Shown here piece after piece: positions 1-10,942 of a stretch of DNA of 10,942 nucleotides. Position numbers and translations under genes: made by a program. Source of the DNA: Magnetococcales bacterium (GTDB taxonomy: Bacteria > Pseudomonadota > Magnetococcia > Magnetococcales > JADFWU01); assembly GCA_015234045.1 (NCBI GenBank), contig JADFWU010000035.1, forward strand, positions 1 to 10,942, given 5' to 3'. The notes under the pieces are model-generated. The model saw only the letters and a list, made by a program, of their open reading frames with translations. It had not been told where the DNA came from and did not search any database. Numbering within the stretch: the stretch's first letter is position 1; each line of letters begins with the position of its first letter.

Positions 1-9
1 GAGCGGAAG

Positions 10-77
10 CCCTGGTGATGTTTTTGCGCCGCTTTTGATATGCGAAGCAGATCATCAGAGCAAAAATATCACCAGGG
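10..77. repeat. 18-bp inverted repeat with 32-base loop
   Basis: Bases 10-27 (CCCTGGTGATGTTTTTGC) and 60-77 (GCAAAAATATCACCAGGG) are reverse complements except at one position, which becomes a G-U pair in RNA read rightward (base 20 with base 67). All 18 positions can therefore pair in a transcript. The loop, 28-59, could form a small extra stem (GCTTT/GAAGC). No T-run follows the stem, so it does not look like a simple terminator. It may be a transposon end, a structured RNA, or a palindromic repeat of the kind scattered in bacterial genomes. The pairing is seen directly; the role is unknown. Confidence 0.6.
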
Positions 78-107
78 ATGGAACGGCTGACTGTTCAAAT
101 TTTAGAC

Positions 108-152
108 TAAACCACAATAAAAGTCCGAATACCGGCTAAAGCCGGTGGTTTA
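108..152. repeat. IS200/IS605-type end-like hairpin
   Basis: Bases 131-146 form a perfect 6-bp hairpin, ACCGGC-TAAA-GCCGGT, followed directly by GGTTTAAAC. A second, competing pairing joins TAAACCAC (108-115) with GTGGTTTA (145-152). Short GC-rich hairpins with a TAAA or GAAG loop followed by GGTTT are typical of the ends of IS200/IS605-family elements that carry tnpB, which lack ordinary inverted repeats. If this is a right end, the element lies left of the window. No transposase is recognisable here, so this rests on shape and motif resemblance only. Confidence 0.35.
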
Positions 153-249
153 AACGCCTGCGCATGGATAATCTAATTAAAACTATGAATCACCACTCTA
201 TAGTCAATTATACTTAGACAATAATAACCCAATAAAAATCCTTCAAATC

Positions 250-279
250 AAAAAAAACGGCACTCCAAAGAGCACCGTT
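250..279 (-). terminator. Rho-independent terminator of the SpoIID gene
   Basis: Read on the minus strand, a 10-bp stem (AACGGTGCTC paired with GAGTGCCGTT, including two G-U pairs) closes a TTTG loop and runs into eight Ts (250-257 on the plus strand). It starts 28 bp after the stop codon of the leftward gene, the expected place for its transcript end. The wobble pairs form only in the minus-strand RNA, which fixes the direction. Confidence 0.85.
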
Positions 280-307
280 GATTTATTCTTCTCAAATTTA
301 TGTTGCT

Positions 308-2041
308 CTACCAATAGTTAATCACCCGCGTTCCAGGATAGTAGAAGGACAAAATTTTCCGATAATCATTGCCCGCCTTGGCCATGTACTGTCCACCAGA
401 CTGCATATAGCCAATCCCATGACCAAACCCCTTTCCATTAAAGGTAAATTGATCGCCTTTGCGCTCAATTGTGGTGATGGTATCCGGTAGCGTACCGATA
501 CGGCCAGCCAACCCTAATGTCACTTTGGGTCGGAATGGAATCACTGTCTTCTGTCCGCCATCGTGTGTGAGACGTACTTTAACCACACGCCCTGAAGGGC
601 CGACATACTCCGGTTGCATGTCTTCCAATTTATTCACATTTATCCGACGTTTACGCAGATTTTTTGCGATTTCTTCAGCAGAGTGTGTATATGACCATAT
701 GGCCAATCCACCCTTTCCAGCCTTAGTGCTCCAACCATCTTCATGGGCGTGCAGATAGTGATGTGAACTATCCCAACGCGATGAGTACTCCTTCTTAGGG
801 TCAGCTGTATACCCTCCACTGTTCGCCGCAAACATAGCCAGAATGGGTTGCAATTTACCTTTGCGAATAGCGGCAATCACTTGACCTTTTGTCTCTCGAA
901 TCGCCTGATCGGTCCTTTTATGCTCTTTATCCACACCGGCATACACCTGGGAACGGATATCGTCATAAACGTCAAAATACTTTTTGGCGTGATTGCGTAC
1001 TTCATTATAGGCATAGGTACGCGCTGCCAGTGTCTGCGCCTTTAAAGCATCCATTTCCCAGCTTGGGTATGACTCCGCTGGCACCACACTCCGTAAATAG
1101 GCTTCCATCTTGACATAATTCATCAAGCGAATTTTGCCATCATTGACTTTTAGATAAATCCGTCCATGAAAGCGCCTTTTCTTCTTATCATATTCAACAC
1201 TGATTGGCTGAGACCGGGAAATGACTTCAATCGATTCGGCTTTGAGCTTGCCCATACTGCTCGTCGAAAGAACACGCCCGGAAACGGTAATGGTGGAACC
1301 ACTCCTCAACGACTTATGTTGACCATCAATGACCAAAACCAAGTTACTTCCTGACAGCTTGACCGATGTTGCACTCTTACTCAGCAGAACCCGTACCGTA
1401 GGCTCGTCAATTTTGGAAAAGCTTTGCATTGCTAGATCAAAAGCCTCATCCCACGCAGTAGGCGTTGATGCCTTCTCAACCGCCTCTTCCGCTTTGCGTT
1501 GGGCGATCATTCGGCGTTGTTCTTCTTTCTGGAACTCCGCAGTACGGATTACATCCTTTGCTTGATCGTGCAACAATTCCAATTGAAAACGGAAACGACC
1601 TGTTAATCCATGACGGCGGATTCGAGACATCACCTCATGGTAGCTCTGCGTCTCAAACAGCAATAATGTTTCCTGGTAGAAAGCCGCATCGGCAAAGCTG
1701 GGAAATTCCTCTTGAATCTGGCGGTAAATCTTCAACGCCGAGTCCGGTGAATTCAGAAAAGAGGCAAACGTAGTCGCCAAATAGAGCAGTGCCCGAGCAC
1801 GGGTTTTCTCTAATTTTGAGGTTTCAAAAGCCGTTTCAAAATAGACCAGAGCATCCAAATATTGATGCTCATCCATCAAGAAGCTACCGTAGTTCAGATT
1901 CCACTGCGCCACGACTTCGGGATTATTCAAAAAAGCAGTGGGAACCTCTTCCTCCGACTCCTCAGCCCAACCAGGAAGCGCCAGCCCCATGGTTATTACA
2001 ACCAACAGAGACATTGCCCACCATTTTACTAACCGAATCAT
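308..2041 (-). CDS. Exported SpoIID/LytB-domain protein with TPR-like N-terminus
   Basis: This 577-residue protein probably cleaves peptidoglycan glycan strands in the periplasm; SpoIID of Bacillus is a lytic transglycosylase acting on strands stripped of stem peptides. Residues 1-26 are a signal peptide (MIRLVKWW then a hydrophobic core, cleavage after GWA). Residues about 41-146 are helical and TPR-like, and 169-191 is a charged, Glu/Lys/Arg-rich helix. The SpoIID/LytB domain follows: VVPAE at 319-323 (its Glu matches the position of the catalytic acid in SpoIID), ALKAQTLAARTYA at 332-344, NSGGY at 407-411, GFGHGIGYMQSGG from 538, and ILSFYYPGT at 563-571. An in-frame ATG at 2098 would add 19 residues, but it would bury the signal peptide. 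The ATG at 2039-2041 is preceded by AAGGTGAGG, so I chose it. Transcribed away from the other genes, with its own terminator. Domain call confident; substrate and partner inferred. Confidence 0.9.
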   Translation of the reverse strand: MIRLVKWWAMSLLVVITMGLALPGWAEESEEEVPTAFLNNPEVVAQWNLNYGSFLMDEHQYLDALVYFETAFETSKLEKTRARALLYLATTFASFLNSPDSALKIYRQIQEEFPSFADAAFYQETLLLFETQSYHEVMSRIRRHGLTGRFRFQLELLHDQAKDVIRTAEFQKEEQRRMIAQRKAEEAVEKASTPTAWDEAFDLAMQSFSKIDEPTVRVLLSKSATSVKLSGSNLVLVIDGQHKSLRSGSTITVSGRVLSTSSMGKLKAESIEVISRSQPISVEYDKKKRRFHGRIYLKVNDGKIRLMNYVKMEAYLRSVVPAESYPSWEMDALKAQTLAARTYAYNEVRNHAKKYFDVYDDIRSQVYAGVDKEHKRTDQAIRETKGQVIAAIRKGKLQPILAMFAANSGGYTADPKKEYSSRWDSSHHYLHAHEDGWSTKAGKGGLAIWSYTHSAEEIAKNLRKRRINVNKLEDMQPEYVGPSGRVVKVRLTHDGGQKTVIPFRPKVTLGLAGRIGTLPDTITTIERKGDQFTFNGKGFGHGIGYMQSGGQYMAKAGNDYRKILSFYYPGTRVINYW

Positions 2042-2124
2042 GTCCTCACCTTTATTCAGGAGTTCAAGGCTTTCATGAATTTCATATAAGCTCGTCAATT
2101 ACTTTGCCATGTAAAACACCAAAA

Positions 2125-2148
2125 TGCACCCTTTTCGGAAAGTGTGCA
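2125..2148. repeat. Palindrome in the divergent intergenic region
   Basis: TGCACCCTTT and AAAGTGTGCA are inverted repeats with one mismatch (2130 against 2143) around a TCGG loop. On the minus strand the hairpin is followed by TTTTGGTGTTTT and lies about 84 bp upstream of the SpoIID start, inside the likely leader. It could be a leader terminator or attenuator, or a protein-binding site between the divergent genes. A further TGCACC copy sits at 2165-2170. Structure seen; role inferred. Confidence 0.5.
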
Positions 2149-2207
2149 ATTGTAGCGTATATCATGCACCAAGGTTACTCTTTTTTTGACAACTCAATGA
2201 TTAGAAA

Positions 2208-2236
2208 TTGGAAACGCAAGCGATATTCACTATGAT
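2208..2236 (+). promoter_or_regulatory. Sigma70-type promoter for the CNBD gene
   Basis: TTGGAA (2208-2213) and TATGAT (2231-2236) are separated by 17 bp. They match the consensus at four and five of six positions. Transcription would begin near 2243, about 45 bases before the ATG at 2290. A perfect TTGACA at 2186-2191 has no matching -10 at the right distance. Confidence 0.55.
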
Positions 2237-2289
2237 GGCAAAATTGAAGGGATTGATTTTCACATCACATGTATCAGGGGGCAGACACA

Positions 2290-2787
2290 ATGGTATTAAC
2301 CTCATTATTGGGTACCATTCCGTTTTTTCAGAACTTTATTGAATCTGAACGTCAGGCTTTTGCTGAAAGAGAGGACTTGATCCACCATTTCAATAAAGGT
2401 GCGTTTATTATCCGGCAAGGTCAGACTGATGAACACTCACTCTACATTCTGCTCAAAGGTCAAGTGCTTGTCAGTAGAATTGACGAACATGGCCTGGAAG
2501 AGAAAATCACAACGCTCAAACCAGGCGATATCATCGGTGAGATCTCCTTTCTTACCAATCGTCCCAGAACCACCAATATCCTCACACTGGAAGAGGTCAT
2601 TGCCATTCGTATTGACAATGAGGCAATAGAGGGCTTTGACTGCCCGCTTCAGATCCGTTTGAAGGATTTTCTCATTAAGGTACTGGTTGATCGTCTGGAG
2701 ATGATGAACTCTTCACAAATGAAAAAAGACGAAATAAATAAACAACTTGTACACGCCTTGCGTGATGCCTATTTGAGCACTCATTGA
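2290..2787 (+). CDS. Stand-alone cyclic-nucleotide-binding-domain protein
   Basis: A 165-residue protein that is almost entirely one CRP-type effector (CNBD) domain. The beta-roll shows GAFIIRQGQ, LYILLKGQVLV, the glycine turn LKPGDIIGEISFL, and the phosphate-binding-cassette-like GEISFLTNRPRTTNI. The Glu and the Arg/Thr pattern resemble cassettes that bind cyclic nucleotides. A helix near KDFLIKVLVDRLEMM would correspond to the CRP dimerisation helix. There is no DNA-binding helix-turn-helix, so it probably acts through partner proteins or as a sensor rather than as a transcription factor. An in-frame ATG at 2269 has no nearby ribosome site. The ATG at 2290 follows AGGGGG (2276-2281) at 8 bases, so I chose it. 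No signal peptide: cytoplasmic. Ligand not determinable from sequence; CNBD folds without a ligand also exist. Confidence 0.85.
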   Translation: MVLTSLLGTIPFFQNFIESERQAFAEREDLIHHFNKGAFIIRQGQTDEHSLYILLKGQVLVSRIDEHGLEEKITTLKPGDIIGEISFLTNRPRTTNILTLEEVIAIRIDNEAIEGFDCPLQIRLKDFLIKVLVDRLEMMNSSQMKKDEINKQLVHALRDAYLSTH

Positions 2788-2891
2788 TACCTGTTCATAC
2801 GTATCAACAAATCCAATAATTAATTCTTGCTTGCACACCGCTATTCATCTACGCAATAGTGTCCATGGGGAGACAAATCTTTTATAGATAT

Positions 2892-2918
2892 ACCATCAAA
2901 ATACAGGCATCTGATGGT
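2892..2918. repeat. 7-bp inverted repeat before the small Cys gene
   Basis: ACCATCA (2892-2898) and TGATGGT (2912-2918) can pair around a 13-base loop. The structure ends just before the AGGGGA ribosome site at 2927-2932. It could be a leader hairpin or an operator. A 7-bp arm can occur by chance, so support is weak. Confidence 0.3.
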
Positions 2919-2941
2919 TCAGTCTCAGGGGAAATGTGTAC

Positions 2942-3241
2942 ATGGCCAAGGTATGTAGCAACGAACAAGAAGCTCTTATCGAAATCAAGTCTAAAATCCT
3001 GCAAATCATCCAGAATGATCAACTTCCCAATGCAAAAAAAATGGCGAAAGTTCTGGAAATGTTTGATTCTTTACCGCGCCTGAGACCAGAAAACATGGTG
3101 GAGATCAAATGCAAAACCTGTACTTTCCCAGACTGCACCACCGGGCAGAAACTCGTTAAGATCAAGCAAGGCCTGGAACATGCCCATACTATTGAAGATG
3201 TTCTCGGCCTGCTGGGTCATGAACATCTGTATGCTTTTTAG
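2942..3241 (+). CDS. Small Cys-containing protein, function unknown
   Basis: A 99-residue cytoplasmic protein that I do not recognise. Residues 8-45 look helical and charged. The centre has IKCKTCTFPDC with Cys57, Cys60 and Cys65 (CxxCxxxxC), plus Cys5. The C-terminal third is helical with His80, His82, His93 and His95. The cysteines could bind zinc or an iron-sulfur cluster, but this is inference. An in-frame GTG at 2936 lies only four bases from the ribosome site. The ATG at 2942 follows AGGGGA (2927-2932) at 9 bases, so I prefer it. It lies 154 bp after the CNBD gene on the same strand, with no clear terminator between them, so co-transcription is possible. Codon phase and the good ribosome site support a real gene. 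Confidence 0.7.
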   Translation: MAKVCSNEQEALIEIKSKILQIIQNDQLPNAKKMAKVLEMFDSLPRLRPENMVEIKCKTCTFPDCTTGQKLVKIKQGLEHAHTIEDVLGLLGHEHLYAF

Positions 3242-3371
3242 GCTCCATCCTCTCCCTTTGAAGACGATCTCACATCATCGATGTATTACTTTCCTATCCT
3301 TGGATAATTTGTTCAGTCTTGTTTGTGATTTTATGACCATTCACCCTGTATTTTTGTGTCCTATCAGCCCT

Positions 3372-3384
3372 AACTATGATAGTT
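3372..3384. promoter_or_regulatory. Palindromic operator-like site
   Basis: AACTAT-G-ATAGTT is a perfect 6-bp palindrome around one base. Its right end overlaps the first two bases of TTGACA (3383-3388), where a repressor dimer could block RNA polymerase. A partial copy, ATCATAG, occurs at 3408-3414. No regulator is identified. Confidence 0.35.
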
Positions 3385-3411
3385 GACAAATCAATATTTA
3401 CTTCCAATCAT
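3383..3411 (+). promoter_or_regulatory. Possible promoter of the DUF4384-tpsB-tpsA series
   Basis: A consensus TTGACA (3383-3388) is followed after 17 bp by AATCAT (3406-3411), four of six matches to the -10. An alternative pair is TTGAAT (3447-3452) and TACATT (3470-3475), also 17 bp apart and still upstream of the favoured TTG start at 3527. The 222-285 bp of AT-rich, gene-free sequence here suggests that the main promoter of the secretion genes lies within it. Confidence 0.4.
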
Positions 3412-3526
3412 AGAAAATTATTGACGCTCTCAATAGCAAATATTCCTTGAATAAACAATTGTATTGAATTACATTACGGAACTGAGAAACAAGAATATTT
3501 TATCAGAATATATTCGGGGTGGGCGA

Positions 3527-4867
3527 TTGCAGCCAATATTTACAAACAAATACATTCTGAAGACGATAATTTGCTTACTCCTGCTAGTATCAACAGGCTT
3601 TTCAAACAGTGCCTGGAGTGATTCGCTGGGCAGTACTGTGAGCCGTATGGTTCACCAAATTGTCCGTGAAGGCGGTCTAACCAATAAGGCTATTCTTGTC
3701 AGCGGTCTCAATTTTTATGATTCTGAAACAGAATTGAGCCTTCCTTTGGCAAAACCTCTACGCGAAAAAGCAATCGCCGAACTACGCGCACAAAATGTTC
3801 AGGTTCTTCTGCCCGGTGCAGGCCAAATGGACAACATGTTGGAGCTGCAATGCACATGGCAACAGGAAGCCGATAATCTTCGCCTGTTCATGAAAGTGCT
3901 TTCACTTTCTGGTGATAACAATCCAAAAGTGGTTTATGCCACCGATGGCATAATCAATCATACGGATGTTGATCCCAAGCTACTGGTGCCGGACATGGAC
4001 TCATGGGCACGCTATCTGGTCCAACGTCTTAACAGAAACTATAGTAAATTCAAATCTGTGACAGTCAATTTAATTCCGGTTTCCATCTCAGGTCGTGATG
4101 ATCCTGGTGAGTTAGGTGAATATCTCACTGACTGGCTCAGACCAGCTATGGCTGAAAGTGGTGTGTTCAACCCTTCGGATCAAGCAGGTTCTGAGAGTGA
4201 TCTGGCTGGCAAAGCATATATCCATCGTAAACAATTGGAAATACGGCTTCATATCCGTGATCGCATGGGCAATCAACTTTCAGCCGCTTCCGCCAAAGTA
4301 CCGCGCAGCTTGTTTCCATCCAGCCTCTTTCTTAACAGCGCGGCAATGCGTACATCCAGGACAACAACAACGCTTCGCAAATCACGGGAACATGCGTTGG
4401 ATCTCTCTTTCCTCTACAAGAGCCCTGGAGAGAAAAAGAACCGGAAATTACCTAAAGACAAACAATCTCTGACCATGATGTCAGAGGATATGTATCGCAT
4501 AGGTTTCATCCCAAATGAGCAAGCATATGTATATATTTTTCAGATAGATTCACTGGGGCAGATCTACAGACTCTTTCCTACATCAACGGTTATATCCTTG
4601 GAAGGAAAAGGACAAAATCCAGTTTCTTCGGGTAAAGAGATCTTTCTGCCACACAGGAACAAATATTATAGTTTGGATAACAACATTGGAGGGGAAAAAC
4701 TGTTTATCATCGTCTCGCATCAGCCGGAAGCTGATCTTGAGATCGATATAGATAATAGCAAGAAAAGACAACAAGTCATCAACACATTAAAAAGAAAATC
4801 ACTGGCAGTCAATCGCCATCGCATATGCGATGGATGCGCGTATCTCATTGGCATTGACCATAGGTAA
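3527..4867 (+). CDS. Exported FlgO/CsgG-like protein with C-terminal DUF4384 domain
   Basis: A periplasmic or envelope protein of about 446 residues. After a signal peptide (FTNKYILK, then a hydrophobic stretch, cleavage near the Ala-Trp-Ser before Asp), two similar alpha/beta modules follow. One spans residues about 50-150 (AILVSGLNFYDSE then a long helix), the other about 175-270 (VTVNLIPVSISGRDD then a helix). Both resemble the FlgO/CsgG/TolB-like fold of envelope proteins. A basic linker leads to DUF4384 at about 321-399 (DMYRIGFIPNEQAYVYIFQ, GQIYRLFP, LFIIVSHQ). There is no lipobox Cys. The tail has a CDGC pair. The longest frame starts at a TTG at 3464 with no ribosome site. The TTG at 3527 follows GGGGTGGG (3516-3523) and gives a normal signal peptide, so I chose it. 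It ends 65 bp before tpsB, probably in one transcript. Function unknown; role in TPS secretion or surface display is inferred. Confidence 0.75.
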   Translation: MQPIFTNKYILKTIICLLLLVSTGFSNSAWSDSLGSTVSRMVHQIVREGGLTNKAILVSGLNFYDSETELSLPLAKPLREKAIAELRAQNVQVLLPGAGQMDNMLELQCTWQQEADNLRLFMKVLSLSGDNNPKVVYATDGIINHTDVDPKLLVPDMDSWARYLVQRLNRNYSKFKSVTVNLIPVSISGRDDPGELGEYLTDWLRPAMAESGVFNPSDQAGSESDLAGKAYIHRKQLEIRLHIRDRMGNQLSAASAKVPRSLFPSSLFLNSAAMRTSRTTTTLRKSREHALDLSFLYKSPGEKKNRKLPKDKQSLTMMSEDMYRIGFIPNEQAYVYIFQIDSLGQIYRLFPTSTVISLEGKGQNPVSSGKEIFLPHRNKYYSLDNNIGGEKLFIIVSHQPEADLEIDIDNSKKRQQVINTLKRKSLAVNRHRICDGCAYLIGIDHR

Positions 4868-4880
4868 CCGCTTAATACAC

Positions 4881-4897
4881 ATCTGAAATATACAGAT
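4881..4897. repeat. Small hairpin before tpsB
   Basis: ATCTG (4881-4885) and CAGAT (4893-4897) can pair around a 7-base AT loop in the 65-bp gap between the DUF4384 gene and tpsB. No T-run follows, so it is not a convincing terminator. It could tune message stability or be chance. Confidence 0.25.
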
Positions 4898-4932
4898 CAG
4901 ATTGTTGCTTCCAAAGAGGAGAAGCTATTCTC

Positions 4933-6645
4933 ATGAGAAAATTAAAAAACAAACAAAAATTCCAAGGTGCACTCAGTGCGTCTCTTCTTTTTCTCTCCAG
5001 TATTGCCATTGCAGTGCCTGCAACCGTAACTGCTGAAGATTTTTCTGCTCGAAAAGAGCGTGAGGCGAATTTTCCGAAAGCCCGTGCTCAGTTTGGTAAA
5101 GCAGATATTGATCTGCCAGAGGGTGGCAGCGGAATGATGGAGCAGTTTAAAAAAGTTAAGCTTCACTTTGCGGGCACTAAAGGCGAGATCACTGGCGCAA
5201 CCCAATATTCTCAAGATGAATTGCAAGGCTACTTTTCTGAGTTGACTGGCAATGAAATCACATTGGACAAAGTGTATGAAGCCGCAAACGCCATTGAATT
5301 GCGGTACAAGAATGATGGCTTTGTGCTTGCACGCGTGGTGATTCCTGCTCAAACCATCTCCGATGGCCGTGTTAAGGTCATGGTGTATGAAGGTTTCATT
5401 GACAAAGTGACAGTCAATGCACCTGGCAATATTCGCGATGTCATCAAAGGCTTTGCAGATAAACTGACCAGTTACAACCCTATTAATATTGAACAACTGG
5501 AACGCTATCTTCTTTTGATCAATGATCTGCCCGGCGTTAAGGCCAAAAGTATTCTGCGTCCTGGTGCCAAATCCGGCAGTACAGAGATTGTGGTTCGTAC
5601 AGAACAGAATCGGTTCGCCGGCACAGCCAGCGTAAACAACTACGGCACAGAGTTTGTTGGTCCAGGCCTCGTTTCCGTTTCCGGCACGACCAATAGCCTG
5701 TTTGATTGGGGTGAACAGTTCACTGTTGAACTCACTGGTACATTACCAAAAGCTGAAGAGTATAACTCCAGACGCTTTGCTTTCAGTTTGCCTATGGGTA
5801 GTGAAGGTTTTCGGATGGATCTGGAGTATTTATCGGTTGATTCCGATCCTGGCTACACATTAAGTGAACTTCTGGCGCTGAGTGATACGGAAAAATTTGC
5901 TATTCAGGCCTATTATCCAACGATTCGTAGCCGTATGCACAACCTCTCCTTTACTGCGGGCTATGACCATCGCAACGCCTCAACTGAAATTCTAAACGCA
6001 CCGTTCCAAGATGATCGCGTCCGCTCCGTACATATTGGTGGCGTTTATGACTGGGCTGATGCGATGGACGGCATCAATCTTGTCGCCCTGACCGTCACAC
6101 AAGGTATTCCTTCGGGTAGCGCAACGAAAAGAGGCGATACGCTCTCCTCACGACCAGAGTCTACACCCGCTTTTACCAGATTGAATCTGGAAGCCTCACG
6201 CCTTCAGAGCCTTCAATCCATGGTTGAAAATCTCAGCTTCTATACCGCATTGGCGGTTCAGATGGCGGATGAACCACTCTATTCGTCAGAGGAGTTCTCC
6301 ATCGGTGGTCGTGAATTCGGACGTGGCTACAATCTCGGTGATATCGCCGGCGACCGTGGTCTGGCTGTAAAAGCAGAGTTGCAATACACCGCCACACTAC
6401 CAAAAGAGAGCAGTGTTCAACTCTACGGATTCTTTGATTATGGCAAAATCTGGAACGTCGATTCTGTTGATCGTGGAACAATTCGAGAGACCGACAGCCT
6501 TGCCTCCAGCGGTGCTGGTCTGCGGTTCAATCTGACCAAGTATGTCGCTATTGAGCTGGAAATGGCCAAGCCTTTGACCAAAACACCAACAACGTTTGAT
6601 GAAAAAGATCCGCGTTACTTTGGTCAGATGAAACTCAGCTTCTGA
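4933..6645 (+). CDS. TpsB outer-membrane transporter (ShlB/FhaC/HecB family)
   Basis: A 570-residue protein that exports the TpsA protein encoded next to it through the outer membrane. Residues 1-34 are a signal peptide (basic start, hydrophobic core, cleavage after VTA). POTRA 1 spans about 75-152 (the GFVLARVVIPAQ segment is typical) and POTRA 2 about 154-225 (ERYLLLINDLPGV). The rest is a beta-barrel. The loop-6 motif, VRGY/F in the family, appears here as GRGYNLGD from 463, followed by GDRGLAVKAELQY. FDYGKIW at 501-507 is also conserved. The last residue is Phe after QMKLS, the usual outer-membrane insertion signal. Length fits the family. AGAGGAG (4915-4921) precedes the ATG at 11 bases, slightly long. 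The stop lies 59 bp before tpsA, the common BA order, which points to one transcript. Family call secure; the gene product is generically TpsB. Confidence 0.95.
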   Translation: MRKLKNKQKFQGALSASLLFLSSIAIAVPATVTAEDFSARKEREANFPKARAQFGKADIDLPEGGSGMMEQFKKVKLHFAGTKGEITGATQYSQDELQGYFSELTGNEITLDKVYEAANAIELRYKNDGFVLARVVIPAQTISDGRVKVMVYEGFIDKVTVNAPGNIRDVIKGFADKLTSYNPINIEQLERYLLLINDLPGVKAKSILRPGAKSGSTEIVVRTEQNRFAGTASVNNYGTEFVGPGLVSVSGTTNSLFDWGEQFTVELTGTLPKAEEYNSRRFAFSLPMGSEGFRMDLEYLSVDSDPGYTLSELLALSDTEKFAIQAYYPTIRSRMHNLSFTAGYDHRNASTEILNAPFQDDRVRSVHIGGVYDWADAMDGINLVALTVTQGIPSGSATKRGDTLSSRPESTPAFTRLNLEASRLQSLQSMVENLSFYTALAVQMADEPLYSSEEFSIGGREFGRGYNLGDIAGDRGLAVKAELQYTATLPKESSVQLYGFFDYGKIWNVDSVDRGTIRETDSLASSGAGLRFNLTKYVAIELEMAKPLTKTPTTFDEKDPRYFGQMKLSF

Positions 6646-6704
6646 GCCGATCACTGATTGCGATTCAGAAGAGATTGACACCCAATAAGCTGAGAGTGAG
6701 ATAG

Positions 6705-9700
6705 ATGAGATTATCCAAGAAAAATTCCGCCAATAGCGGTTCAAATATGCATAATACCGTTTTTTCCAAAGGGTTGCGTTCCCTGGGATCAAAATCCCTG
6801 GCCCTCGCCGCCATTTTCACCGCAGGTGGTATTCAAACCGCCCAAGCGTTGCCTCAAGGGGCAGAAATCAAGTCTGGTCAGGCAAGTATTAATTCCAACG
6901 CCACCAAGATGACCGTCACGCAGACCAGTAATAAAGCCATTATTGACTGGCGTTCATTCGGCATTAAAGCCGAAGAATCCGTCAATTTTGACATGTCAGC
7001 CAGCGCCACAGTACTCAACAGAGTCACTGGCAATGATATGTCCAAAATTTTTGGTAAGCTACAAGCCGATGGCACCCTGATCCTGGTCAATGCCAACGGC
7101 ATCCTCTTTGGCAAAAGCGCGACCGTCGATGTAGGTAATTTGGTCGCCACCACCGCAGACATCAATAATGCGGATTTCTTATCAGGCAACATGGTGTTCA
7201 ACTTGCCCTCATCGGTTCAGAATGCCTCTGTAATCAACAAAGGCAACCTCTCTGTAAAAGAGCATGGTTTTGCGGCACTTGTTGCACCCACGGTTTCCAA
7301 CAGTGGTGTCATTCAAGCACAAATGGGACAGGTCGTTCTTGGTGGTGCAGACACCTTTACCATGGATTTCTATGGCGATGGTCTGATGCAGTTTGAGTTG
7401 GCCAGCACTGGCAACAACGGCTCTGTTGACCATAGTGGTTTAATTGCCGCTGACGGTGGCAAGGTTCTCCTCTCTGCTGCCACAATGGAAGGCGTTGTTG
7501 ATAATGTCATCAATATGGATGGCATCATCGAAGCCCGTGCTGTTGAACAGCGCGGTGGTGAAATTATTCTTTCTGGCGGTAACAGCGGTATTGTCAGCGT
7601 AACCGGCAGCATGGATGTTTCCGGTGCCGAAGCAGGCCAAACCGGCGGTACTGTTATTGTCGAAGGCGAAAAAGTCGGCCTGTTCGGCTCGGCTTCCATC
7701 GATGCTTCTGGTGCAGCAGGTGGCGGTACAGTTAAAGTAGGCGGCGGACTCCGTGGTGCTGATAGTACTGTAAAAAATGCCAAGATGACCTATGTCGGCG
7801 CTGACACCACCATCACCGTGGATGCCACGATGGACGGTGACGGCGGTAAAGCTGTCGTTTGGGCTGATGGTACCACACGATTCCACGGCGCAATCTCTGC
7901 ACAAGGTGCAGGCAATGGCGATGGTGGCTTTGTTGAAGTATCCGGCAAAGAGATGCTGACCTACTCCGGTGAAGTCAATCTCAGTGCTGAAAATGGTAAC
8001 AACGGAACACTGCTGCTTGATCCCCAGAATCTGACCATTGAAAACGGTGGTGACACCGATCTCAATGGTGCCAATAATGACGATGCAGATGCACAAAAAT
8101 ACGCCTTTGTAGAAAATGAAGACGGGACAGATGCCTCTATTGATGCTGATGCCATCGTAACTGCGCTTGCCACCGGTAACGTTATTCTCCAAGCTGATGA
8201 CGATATCACCGTTGATGAAGGCATCAGTTCAAACGATAACACCAGCCTGACGCTACAGGCTGGTGATGACATCACGGTCAACAGCACCATAACGATGACC
8301 GGCACAGGAAGCGTGTCGCTTCAAGCAGGCGATATTGCTGGTGGTGCCACACCAGTGGCTAAAGATGGCAATGGTGACATCACTGTAGCTGCTGCAATCA
8401 CAACCACAACCGGCGCAATCACATTCTCAACAGAGAGCGCCGGCAGTGTCAGTTTTGCCGATGATATTACTACCGCTGGCGGTAATATCACGCTTTCAAA
8501 CAATGTTGAACTGACCGCTGACACGACTTTCTCTACGGGAGCAGGTGCCGGTGATATTCAGTTTGATGGCACTATTGTTGGTAAGACCACTGCAAAAAAT
8601 CTAACTGTGGATGCGGGCACCGGTTCCGTTACACTCTCAGATACTGTAGGTAGTTCAAATCTGATCAATGAAGTGAATATCACAGGTGCAGGTGGTATCA
8701 ATATCAACGGTGGCAGCATTACTTCTCAAAGCATTCAGAACTACAATAGTGCCGTCACATTAGGTGCTGACACCCTATTCACTGTTATTGACGACAACAT
8801 TGCCTTTGACAGCACTATCAGCGGCGCAACATCTGTACAAAACCTCACTGTTTCAGCGGGTACTGGTTCCGTCACTCTGGATGGTGCTATTGGTGGTTCC
8901 AACCTGATCAATACGGTAAGTCTCACCGGTACGGCTGGTATCAACATCAATGGTAGCAGCGTTACTTCACAAGGTGCGCAGGACTACAACAGCGCGGTTG
9001 TCCTCGGTGCGGACACCACATTCACAACCACTGATGCCAATGTAACCTTTGACAGTACCGTAAGCGGTGTGACAGCAGTGCGTAACTTTACAGTCGCTGC
9101 GGGCACAGGTGCGGTAACACTGTCCGGTGCGGTTGGTGGTTCCAATCTGATCAACGCTGTGAATGTCACCGGCTCCGGCGGTATCGCCATTGATGGTGGC
9201 GTAGTTACCAGTCAGAGCACGCAAGACTACAACAATGCCGTTACCCTTGGTGCTGACACCACACTTACAGCCGCTGGTAACATCACCATGGACAGTACGG
9301 TGGCTGGCTCAGGTGGTTCTAAAAGTCTGACTTTGGATGCCAGCACTGCCGGCACTATCACAGTCAGTGGTGCCGTCAGCGACATCACAACGTTGACCAT
9401 CACTCAAAGCAACGGTGCAACCTTTGCCGATAGCGTGACAGCCACAACCGCCACGCTGACCGATACCGAAGATGGACAAACCATCGCCTTCCAAGGTGAT
9501 ACAACGCTGACCACCCTCAATACCGCTGCTGCTGGATATAATCTGTCACTCACTGGCAGTTCGAACACCATCACGGATGCGTTCGCTCCGATCAATACCG
9601 GCACACTGACCATCGGCGATGCCAGTACGGACAGCACCACATTTGTCAGCACAATAGACACATCTACCCCTTCAAGCGTTAGCGTGGCTGGTACAATTCA

Positions 9701-10942
9701 AACCGCTGGCACACCTACCCTTGGCGATTTGACACTTACGGATGACACCACCCTCATCGTAACAACCGGTGATGTCACACTGAGCAACGCTATTCAAGGC
9801 TCTGGCTCTGCAAGAAGCTTTACCGTTAATGCCAATAATGGTGCTCTCACGGTCACAACAGCCATTGCTGGTACAGATCTAATCAATAATCTCGATCTGA
9901 CCGCATCCAATGGAATCGCTTTGAATAATGGCTCCATCGTCACAACTGGTACGCAAGACTACAACAGTGCGATCACCCTAGGCGCTGACACCACACTCAC
10001 AGCTGGTGGCAACATTGCCATGGATAGCACAGTGACTGGTTCAGGTGGCTCCAGAAGCCTAACTCTGGATGCCAGCACAGCCGGTACAATTACAGTAGGC
10101 GGTGCTGTCAGTGATATCTCTACTTTGACCATCACTCAGAGTAACGGTGCAACCTTTGCAGACAGCGTGGCAGCCACAACCGTCACACTGACCGATACTG
10201 AAGATGGCCAGACCATCGCCTTCCAAGGTGATACAACACTGACCACACTCAATACCGCTGCGGCAGGATACAACCTCTCCTTCACCGGTAGCACAAACAC
10301 CATTACCGATGCGGTGACACTGCTCAATACCGGCAGCCTGACCCTTGGCGATGCCAGCACAGATAGTATGACTTTCTCAGGTCTGCTTGACGCGTCTGCC
10401 ACATCCGGTGTCAACACTGCCGGTACCATTCAGACTGGTGGCGCAACAACACTGAGTGCCGTAACACTTGCGGATGACACCACACTGACTGCCACTACCG
10501 GTGACATCGCTTTTGGTAGCACAATTCAAGGCTCTGGCGCAGTTCGGAACCTGACAGCCACAGCAACCAATGGTGCTTTGACCATTGCTGGTATCGTTGG
10601 CGGATCGAACTTGGTTAACAACCTGGACCTGACCGCTTCCAATGGCATCACTTTGAACGGCGGCACTGTCACTACGCAAGGCACACAAGACTACAACAGT
10701 GCAGTTAACCTCGGTGCTGACACCACCTTTACCGCTGCTGATGCCAATGTGGCTTTTGACAGCACCATCAGCGGTGTGACTGCTGTACGTAATCTGACTG
10801 TCAACGCCGGCACTGGCTCCGTTACCCTGGATGGTGCGGTTGGTGGTTCCAACTTGATCAATGCGGTGGATATCACTGGTACCGCTGGCATCAACATCAA
10901 CGGTGGCAGCGTTACGTCTCAAAGCACGCAGGATTACAACAG
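6705..10942 (+). CDS. TpsA giant repeat adhesin, 3' end beyond window
   Basis: At least 1412 codons, open to the right edge with no stop. This is the secreted partner of TpsB and is likely a beta-helical surface adhesin or filament. Residues 1-48 are an extended signal peptide (basic start, SLALAAIFTAGG, cleavage after AQA). The TPS domain (about 49-230) shows DWRSFGI, VLNRVTGND, IFGKLQADG, NANGILFG at 129-136 (NPNG in most relatives), VGNLVATT, ASVINKG and FYGDGL. Residues about 240-445 are Gly-rich (SIDASGAAGGG, VVWADGTTRFHG, GDGGFVEVSGKE) and end in GTLLLDPQNLTI, a motif common in large TPS exoproteins. Irregular solenoid rungs follow, such as LQAGDDITV. From about 8490 the protein is tandem 81-residue repeats. 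There is no cysteine. ATG 6705 has only a weak ribosome site (GAGTGAG); an internal ATG at 6747 would cut the signal peptide. The adhesion target is unknown. Confidence 0.95.
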   Translation, partial: MRLSKKNSANSGSNMHNTVFSKGLRSLGSKSLALAAIFTAGGIQTAQALPQGAEIKSGQASINSNATKMTVTQTSNKAIIDWRSFGIKAEESVNFDMSASATVLNRVTGNDMSKIFGKLQADGTLILVNANGILFGKSATVDVGNLVATTADINNADFLSGNMVFNLPSSVQNASVINKGNLSVKEHGFAALVAPTVSNSGVIQAQMGQVVLGGADTFTMDFYGDGLMQFELASTGNNGSVDHSGLIAADGGKVLLSAATMEGVVDNVINMDGIIEARAVEQRGGEIILSGGNSGIVSVTGSMDVSGAEAGQTGGTVIVEGEKVGLFGSASIDASGAAGGGTVKVGGGLRGADSTVKNAKMTYVGADTTITVDATMDGDGGKAVVWADGTTRFHGAISAQGAGNGDGGFVEVSGKEMLTYSGEVNLSAENGNNGTLLLDPQNLTIENGGDTDLNGANNDDADAQKYAFVENEDGTDASIDADAIVTALATGNVILQADDDITVDEGISSNDNTSLTLQAGDDITVNSTITMTGTGSVSLQAGDIAGGATPVAKDGNGDITVAAAITTTTGAITFSTESAGSVSFADDITTAGGNITLSNNVELTADTTFSTGAGAGDIQFDGTIVGKTTAKNLTVDAGTGSVTLSDTVGSSNLINEVNITGAGGININGGSITSQSIQNYNSAVTLGADTLFTVIDDNIAFDSTISGATSVQNLTVSAGTGSVTLDGAIGGSNLINTVSLTGTAGININGSSVTSQGAQDYNSAVVLGADTTFTTTDANVTFDSTVSGVTAVRNFTVAAGTGAVTLSGAVGGSNLINAVNVTGSGGIAIDGGVVTSQSTQDYNNAVTLGADTTLTAAGNITMDSTVAGSGGSKSLTLDASTAGTITVSGAVSDITTLTITQSNGATFADSVTATTATLTDTEDGQTIAFQGDTTLTTLNTAAAGYNLSLTGSSNTITDAFAPINTGTLTIGDASTDSTTFVSTIDTSTPSSVSVAGTIQTAGTPTLGDLTLTDDTTLIVTTGDVTLSNAIQGSGSARSFTVNANNGALTVTTAIAGTDLINNLDLTASNGIALNNGSIVTTGTQDYNSAITLGADTTLTAGGNIAMDSTVTGSGGSRSLTLDASTAGTITVGGAVSDISTLTITQSNGATFADSVAATTVTLTDTEDGQTIAFQGDTTLTTLNTAAAGYNLSFTGSTNTITDAVTLLNTGSLTLGDASTDSMTFSGLLDASATSGVNTAGTIQTGGATTLSAVTLADDTTLTATTGDIAFGSTIQGSGAVRNLTATATNGALTIAGIVGGSNLVNNLDLTASNGITLNGGTVTTQGTQDYNSAVNLGADTTFTAADANVAFDSTISGVTAVRNLTVNAGTGSVTLDGAVGGSNLINAVDITGTAGININGGSVTSQSTQDYN
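8490..8735 (+). repeat. Degenerate first 81-residue unit of tpsA
   Basis: This stretch contains the same ordered motifs as the later units but is more diverged: TADTTFS, NLTVDAGTGSVTLSD, GSSNLINEVNITG, ININGGSITSQ. Its start is about two codons shorter than in later units, so the left boundary is approximate. It marks the change from irregular solenoid to regular repeats. Confidence 0.55.
8736..9221 (+). repeat. Two tandem 243-bp repeats in tpsA
   Basis: Units 8736-8978 and 8979-9221 are each exactly 81 codons. Each begins with Gln-(Asn/Asp)-Tyr-Asn and carries LGAD, FDST, LTV/FTV-AGTG, GGSNLIN and VTSQ in the same order. With shared GSNLIN and QDYNSAV steps, 81 residues fits about four beta-helix turns of some 20 residues each. 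The fold is inferred from the family. Confidence 0.9.
9222..10685 (+). repeat. Two tandem 732-bp higher-order repeats in tpsA
   Basis: Blocks 9222-9953 and 9954-10685 are each exactly 244 codons. Inside each, a DTTL motif recurs at residues 12, 93 and 175, so one block equals about three 81-residue periods. The first and third periods resemble the 243-bp units, whereas the middle one (TLTITQSNGATFADS, TEDGQTIAFQGDTTL, TITDA, TGTLTIGDASTD) is distinct. By hand count the blocks agree at 108 of the first 120 residues but only 70 of the last 124. Confidence 0.9.
10686..10942 (+). repeat. Return to 243-bp units at the right edge
   Basis: A complete 243-bp unit occupies 10686-10928, and the next begins at 10929 with Gln-Asp-Tyr-Asn before the window ends. 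The complete unit matches the unit at 8979-9221 at about 65 of 81 residues by hand count. The array therefore continues beyond the window, and its total length is unknown. Confidence 0.85.

What the first reader, a model, noticed from the sequence alone, without database searches (positions are those of the whole stretch)
9222..10685. Higher-order repeat: 3 x 81 residues duplicated as exact 732-bp blocks
Seen directly: QDYN start points fall at 8736, 8979, 9222, 9954, 10686 and 10929, giving spacings of 243, 243, 732, 732 and 243 bp. Within each 732-bp block the DTTL motif keeps an 81-82 residue phase. So a three-unit block was duplicated as a whole inside an array of single units, as in higher-order satellite repeats, while the solenoid register was kept. 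The distinct middle unit may carry a separate binding surface.
Basis: seen in the sequence. Interest (0 to 1): 0.7.

Follow-up and report, generated by a model that had tools for sequence, protein, structure and literature searches.

The report
Nested repeats in a secreted β-helix protein
A large secreted surface protein contains repeated 81-residue pieces, and one three-piece block occurs twice in a row; this is a real but ordinary feature of such "two-partner secretion" proteins, and the assembly breaks off inside the repeats so their true number is unknown.

Summary
The repeat is real but the blocks are not exact copies. Q(D/N)YN starts lie where stated, and the 732-bp offset is the strongest in the array (52% identity against at most 35% in codon shuffles). 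However, the two blocks (9222-9953, 9954-10685) are only 72% identical in DNA and 73% in protein, with no exact run over 26 bp. Each block is three sub-units of 76+86+82 residues. Outer sub-units a and c are degenerate 81-residue units; middle sub-unit b has no detectable sequence kinship. Sub-units pair between blocks (a1/a2, b1/b2, c1/c2), supporting an old block-level duplication under purifying selection. AlphaFold2 gives one continuous β-helix, 4 turns per 81 residues and about 12 per block, so register is kept and b is not a separate domain. The gene is a TpsA exoprotein beside its TpsB. The window stops at an assembly gap inside this array, where the flanks suggest at least one further near-identical unit, so total copy number is unknown. 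Order-level relatives show other periods, including a duplicated two-unit 175-residue block, and EtpA has 228-residue multi-turn repeats. Nested passenger repeats are a known kind of feature.

The parts
4933..6645 (+). TpsB outer-membrane transporter (POTRA_2 + ShlB)
   Evidence: Pfam PF03865 2.8e-33, PF08479 3.4e-14
6705..10942 (+). tpsA exoprotein gene, cut by the assembly gap that begins at the base after the window end
   Evidence: open frame of 1412 aa to the window end; gap at contig 10943-11041
6840..7586 (+). TPS secretion domain
   Evidence: PF05860 2.7e-36, aa 46-294; TIGR01901 2.3e-21
8493..8735 (+). 81-aa unit u0 (no QDYN, 2-residue shift)
   Evidence: unit HMM 115 bits
8736..8978 (+). 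81-aa unit u1 (QNYN)
   Evidence: unit HMM 131 bits
8979..9221 (+). 81-aa unit u2
   Evidence: unit HMM 133 bits
9222..9953 (+). composite block 1 (244 aa): a1 9222-9449, b1 9450-9707, c1 9708-9953
9954..10685 (+). composite block 2 (244 aa): a2 9954-10181, b2 10182-10439, c2 10440-10685
   Evidence: 72.4% nt and 73% aa identical to block 1
10686..10928 (+). 81-aa unit u3
   Evidence: unit HMM 143 bits; shares an exact 72-bp run with unit r1 beyond the gap
10929..10942 (+). first 14 bases of a further unit, cut by the assembly gap

Best explanation
This is the passenger region of a single TpsA exoprotein (type Vb, two-partner secretion), exported by the TpsB encoded just upstream and folding outside the cell into a long right-handed beta-helix. 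The array grew by internal tandem duplication of an 81-residue, four-turn module; a diverged three-module stretch (a-b-c, 244 residues, about 12 turns) was later duplicated once as a whole. Because module and block are whole numbers of turns, each event lengthens the fibre without breaking frame or helix register. The fibre is most likely an adhesin or spacer. Shown: repeats, TPS domain, TpsB, sub-unit pairing, predicted fold. Inferred: secretion, adhesion, recombination as the source of the copies.
For: TPS domain and adjacent POTRA/ShlB gene. Unit profile finds u0-u3 before the gap, r0-r2 after it, and degenerate a and c in both blocks. Pairing a1/a2, b1/b2, c1/c2 in trees. dN/dS about 0.05 (first half) and 0.14 (second half), so the copies are old and constrained, though dS is near saturation. 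AlphaFold2 model mean pLDDT 84, pTM 0.83: all-beta solenoid whose long strands recur at 13, 35, 58, 75 and again from 94 (+81) and 338 (+244); VIA-align puts the HMW1 and HxuA TPS beta-helices at Z 18.2 and 16.0. By sequence the 1412 aa match EtpA at E 8.6e-53 over most of their length. Relatives with a similar TPS domain have their own nested periods: G036 84 aa plus a 175-aa two-unit block (82+93) at 86%; G045 103 and 207; G019 165-170; G300 about 272 at up to 96%.
Against: Foldseek gave no significant match (best E 0.02), so the fold rests on the AlphaFold model from a two-row alignment and the VIA re-alignment; the single-sequence model of the whole array was poor (pLDDT 58). Turn counts were read from DSSP strands, not measured on coordinates; the turn near residue 219 is weak. 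Adhesion is untested. Copy-number change could not be tested: no genome of the same genus or family is held and no close relative of the block was found.
Confidence: 0.85

Rival explanations
1. The two blocks are an assembly artefact.
For: The array does defeat the assembler: a 99-N gap begins at window position 10943, and 167 bp on either side of it are 98.2% identical.
Against: The blocks are only 72% identical with no exact run above 26 bp, so their k-mers are distinct and could hardly be duplicated or collapsed by an assembler. The frame is open through both.
Confidence: 0.03
2. Block 2 was not copied as one piece, or its copies were later re-mixed: the first half was homogenised by gene conversion while the rest derives from older or separate unit duplications.
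For: Identity drops from about 82% (first 354 bp) to about 62% (rest); c2 is nearer to single units (53% to u3) than c1 is (33%).
Against: b1/b2 and c1/c2 still pair as closest relatives with high support; the drop could equally reflect weaker constraint (dN 0.05 against 0.29).
Confidence: 0.2
3. The middle sub-unit b is a separate functional (ligand-binding) module inserted into the array.
For: No sequence kinship with the 81-aa unit (-9 to -10 bits; 15-29% identity), though conserved between the blocks (76%).
Against: It keeps the DTTL phase (81 and 82 residues) and is predicted as about four further beta-helix turns with no extra-helical domain; no relative of b was found, so no function can be transferred.
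Confidence: 0.1

Closest known systems
EtpA (TpsA adhesin; PMC10284417, PMC11463764; PDB 8vba, 8cpk)
   Same: TPS domain then long beta-helix; large repeats, each many turns (228 aa, nine turns) with a shorter motif inside; repeats described as arising by internal duplication; best PDB match by sequence.
   Different: Repeat length (244 and 81 against 228), turn length (about 20 aa against about 25), sequence of the repeats; here the blocks sit between single units. EtpA binds flagellin and blood group A glycans; nothing suggests that here.
Order-level relative G036:C288, TpsA of 1798 aa
   Same: Gene order TpsB-TpsA-...-caspase gene; TPS regions 48% identical; QxY-type units of 82-84 aa and a duplicated two-unit block.
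   Different: Dimer block of 175 aa at 86% instead of a trimer of 244 aa at 73%; no sub-unit b; an IalB-like gene lies between tpsA and the caspase gene.
FHA, HMW1, HxuA (TpsA family)
   Same: TPS secretion domain, beta-helix passenger with imperfect repeats (PMC5422565).
   Different: Different repeat families; Pfam and NCBIfam gave no match for the 81-aa unit.

Membership tests
Two-partner secretion TpsA exoprotein | N-terminal TPS secretion domain | tested here: met
   PF05860 2.7e-36 over 1-242 of 252; TIGR01901 2.3e-21
Two-partner secretion TpsA exoprotein | Cognate TpsB (POTRA_2 + ShlB) encoded beside it | tested here: met
   ORF 4933-6645, PF03865 and PF08479
Two-partner secretion TpsA exoprotein | Long beta-helix passenger of imperfect repeats | tested here: met
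   Repeats; predicted beta-solenoid pLDDT 84, VIA Z 18.2 to the HMW1 TPS domain; predicted, not solved
Two-partner secretion TpsA exoprotein | Secreted through the TpsB | not testable with these tools
   needs an experiment
EtpA-type 228-residue repeats | 228-residue, nine-turn repeats with STSGNAINL motifs | tested here: not met
   periods are 81 and 244 aa; no such motif in the translation
Higher-order (satellite-like) repeat array | Multi-unit block present in several near-identical copies, far more alike than units within a block | tested here: inconclusive
   Blocks are more alike (73%) than sub-units within a block (19-43%), but there are only two diverged copies

The most novel reading that the evidence does not exclude
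The TpsA fibre length is tuned in the population by recombination between units and between whole blocks in exact whole-turn steps (4 or 12 turns), with the near-identical units at the assembly gap as the active part of the array.
Probability: 0.2. Interest if true: 0.4.

Novelty: new member of a known kind. Interest (0 to 1): 0.22.

Why it matters
It is a clear example of how β-helix exoproteins lengthen in whole-turn modules at two levels, and a warning that draft assemblies break inside such arrays, so copy numbers read from them are lower bounds or guesses. By itself it changes no view of these proteins.

Tried and rejected
Tandem Repeats Finder gave no rows (copies too diverged or period too long). 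Scans for relatives of the 244-aa block in genome contigs, viral contigs and plasmids found none; the three-unit query found only weak loci in a Polynucleobacter and a Verrucomicrobia MAG, and matches in 6 of 398 genomes of the phylum, so no strain-level copy-number comparison was possible. The single-sequence structure job on 817 aa was of low confidence and not used. Foldseek against PDB had no significant match. A literature search for 'filamentous hemagglutinin' with 'higher-order repeat' found nothing. Assembly artefact as the source of the blocks was rejected on their divergence.

Full report
What was claimed.

Check of the observation. All six motif positions are right (8736 reads QNYN). 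Offset 732 is the strongest nucleotide self-match of 8490-10942 and 243 the second; 50 codon shuffles never exceeded 0.35 where 0.52 is observed. At protein level the top offset is 244 aa, then 81. The blocks are not exact: 72.4% nt and 73% aa identity, about 82% nt over the first half and about 62% over the rest, longest exact run 26 bp. 'Exact' is true of the spacing only. dN/dS of about 0.05 and 0.14 in the two halves indicates old copies under purifying selection, with the caution that dS is 0.9-2.2.

Anatomy. A profile of the 81-aa unit finds full units at aa 597, 678, 759 and 1328 before the gap (115-143 bits), and one partial (83 bits) and two full units (136-137 bits) after it, followed by a degenerate one (36 bits). 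In each block it finds a degenerate unit at the start (34 and 33 bits) and at the end (44 and 72 bits), but nothing in the middle (-9.9 and -9.1 bits). Thus a block is a(76)+b(86)+c(82). The DT(T/L)(L/F) motif nevertheless keeps an 81-82 residue phase through b. In trees a1 pairs with a2, c1 with c2, b1 with b2, all well supported, as expected if the block was duplicated whole after its sub-units had diverged. c2 is closer to the single units than c1 is, and identity falls along the block, so partial later exchange is not excluded.

The assembly gap. The window is bases 1-10942 of a 35,971-bp contig. A run of 99 N begins at 10943, inside the array. The last 167 bases before the gap and the first 167 after it are 98.2% identical, with three differences, all synonymous. 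The reading frame on the two sides agrees if the true gap is 76 + 243k bases or if the flanks overlap by 167. The 76-base stretch that would be missing corresponds to a stretch in which u3 and the first full unit after the gap share an exact 72-bp run, which is where a short-read assembler would break. I read this as at least one further near-identical unit (inference); the overlap model is possible but needs three base differences in one locus. The true copy number is therefore unknown, while the two 732-bp blocks themselves are too diverged to be assembly products. Assembly failure in tandem repeats is well documented (PMC6868369, abstract read).

Fold. A model of unit u2 + block 1 + start of block 2 (406 aa, two window rows as alignment) has mean pLDDT 84 and pTM 0.83 and is all-β. 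Its long strands start at 13, 35, 58, 75 in the unit, at 94, 115, 133, 153, 175, 195, about 219, 233, 251, 279, 302, 319 in the block, and again at 338: 4 turns per 81 residues, about 12 per 244. Sub-unit b is built of about four turns like the others with no protruding domain. VIA-align gives HMW1 TPS domain Z 18.2 (3.4 A, 251 residues) and HxuA TPS domain Z 16.0 (2.7 A, 201 residues); Foldseek alone was not significant.

Gene context. The gene has a TPS domain and stands behind a TpsB gene. It is the only TPS-domain gene found in this genome. By sequence the closest solved proteins are EtpA, HMW1 and HxuA.

Relatives. No relative of the 244-aa block was found in named genomes, viral contigs, plasmids or 60 related genomes, beyond a partial match of its first sub-unit in G036. 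No other member of the genus or family is held, so copy-number change cannot be tested. Of 61 genomes (own included), 22 have related TPS regions. Of those examined, G036 has 84-aa units and a duplicated two-unit block of 175 aa at 86% identity, G045 periods of 103 and 207, G019 165-170, G028 72 aa; in the wider phylum G300 has about 272-aa repeats at up to 96%. Nested repeats are thus usual in this protein class, and EtpA's 228-aa nine-turn repeats are the published counterpart (PMC10284417; PMC11463764).

Verdict. A real, two-level repeat in a TpsA β-helix passenger; block duplication and kept register supported; 'exact' and the satellite analogy overdrawn; separate binding surface unsupported. 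New member of a known kind, low interest.

Noticed in passing
contig C46 12986-14764 (L006:8087-9865), just after tpsA; also G036:C288, G033:C2, G041:C3, G045:C111: A caspase-domain (Peptidase_C14) protein with a lipoprotein-like signal (LTSC) and His/Cys motifs (YYAGHG, SDSCYSG) follows tpsA; a caspase gene also lies near tpsA in G036, and in G033, G041 and G045 a caspase domain lies near the C-terminus of the TPS-domain protein itself (probably G039 too by coordinates). Gene neighbourhood plus fusion suggests a functional link, such as processing or release of the exoprotein; one literature search found no paper on it.
   Followed up: partly
window 3464-4867: A DUF4384 protein (PF14326) directly upstream of tpsB, same strand, possibly part of the operon.
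   Followed up: no
contig C46 20140-20239: A second assembly gap of 100 N in the same contig.
   Followed up: no
window 308-2098 (-) and 2269-2787 (+): SpoIID-domain protein with TPR, and a cyclic-nucleotide-binding-domain protein, upstream of the TPS locus.
   Followed up: no
L070 (G300:C2, open frame of 9496 aa): A very large repeat protein in another genome of the phylum with about 272-aa repeats up to 96% identical and weak kinship to the 81-aa unit.
   Followed up: partly
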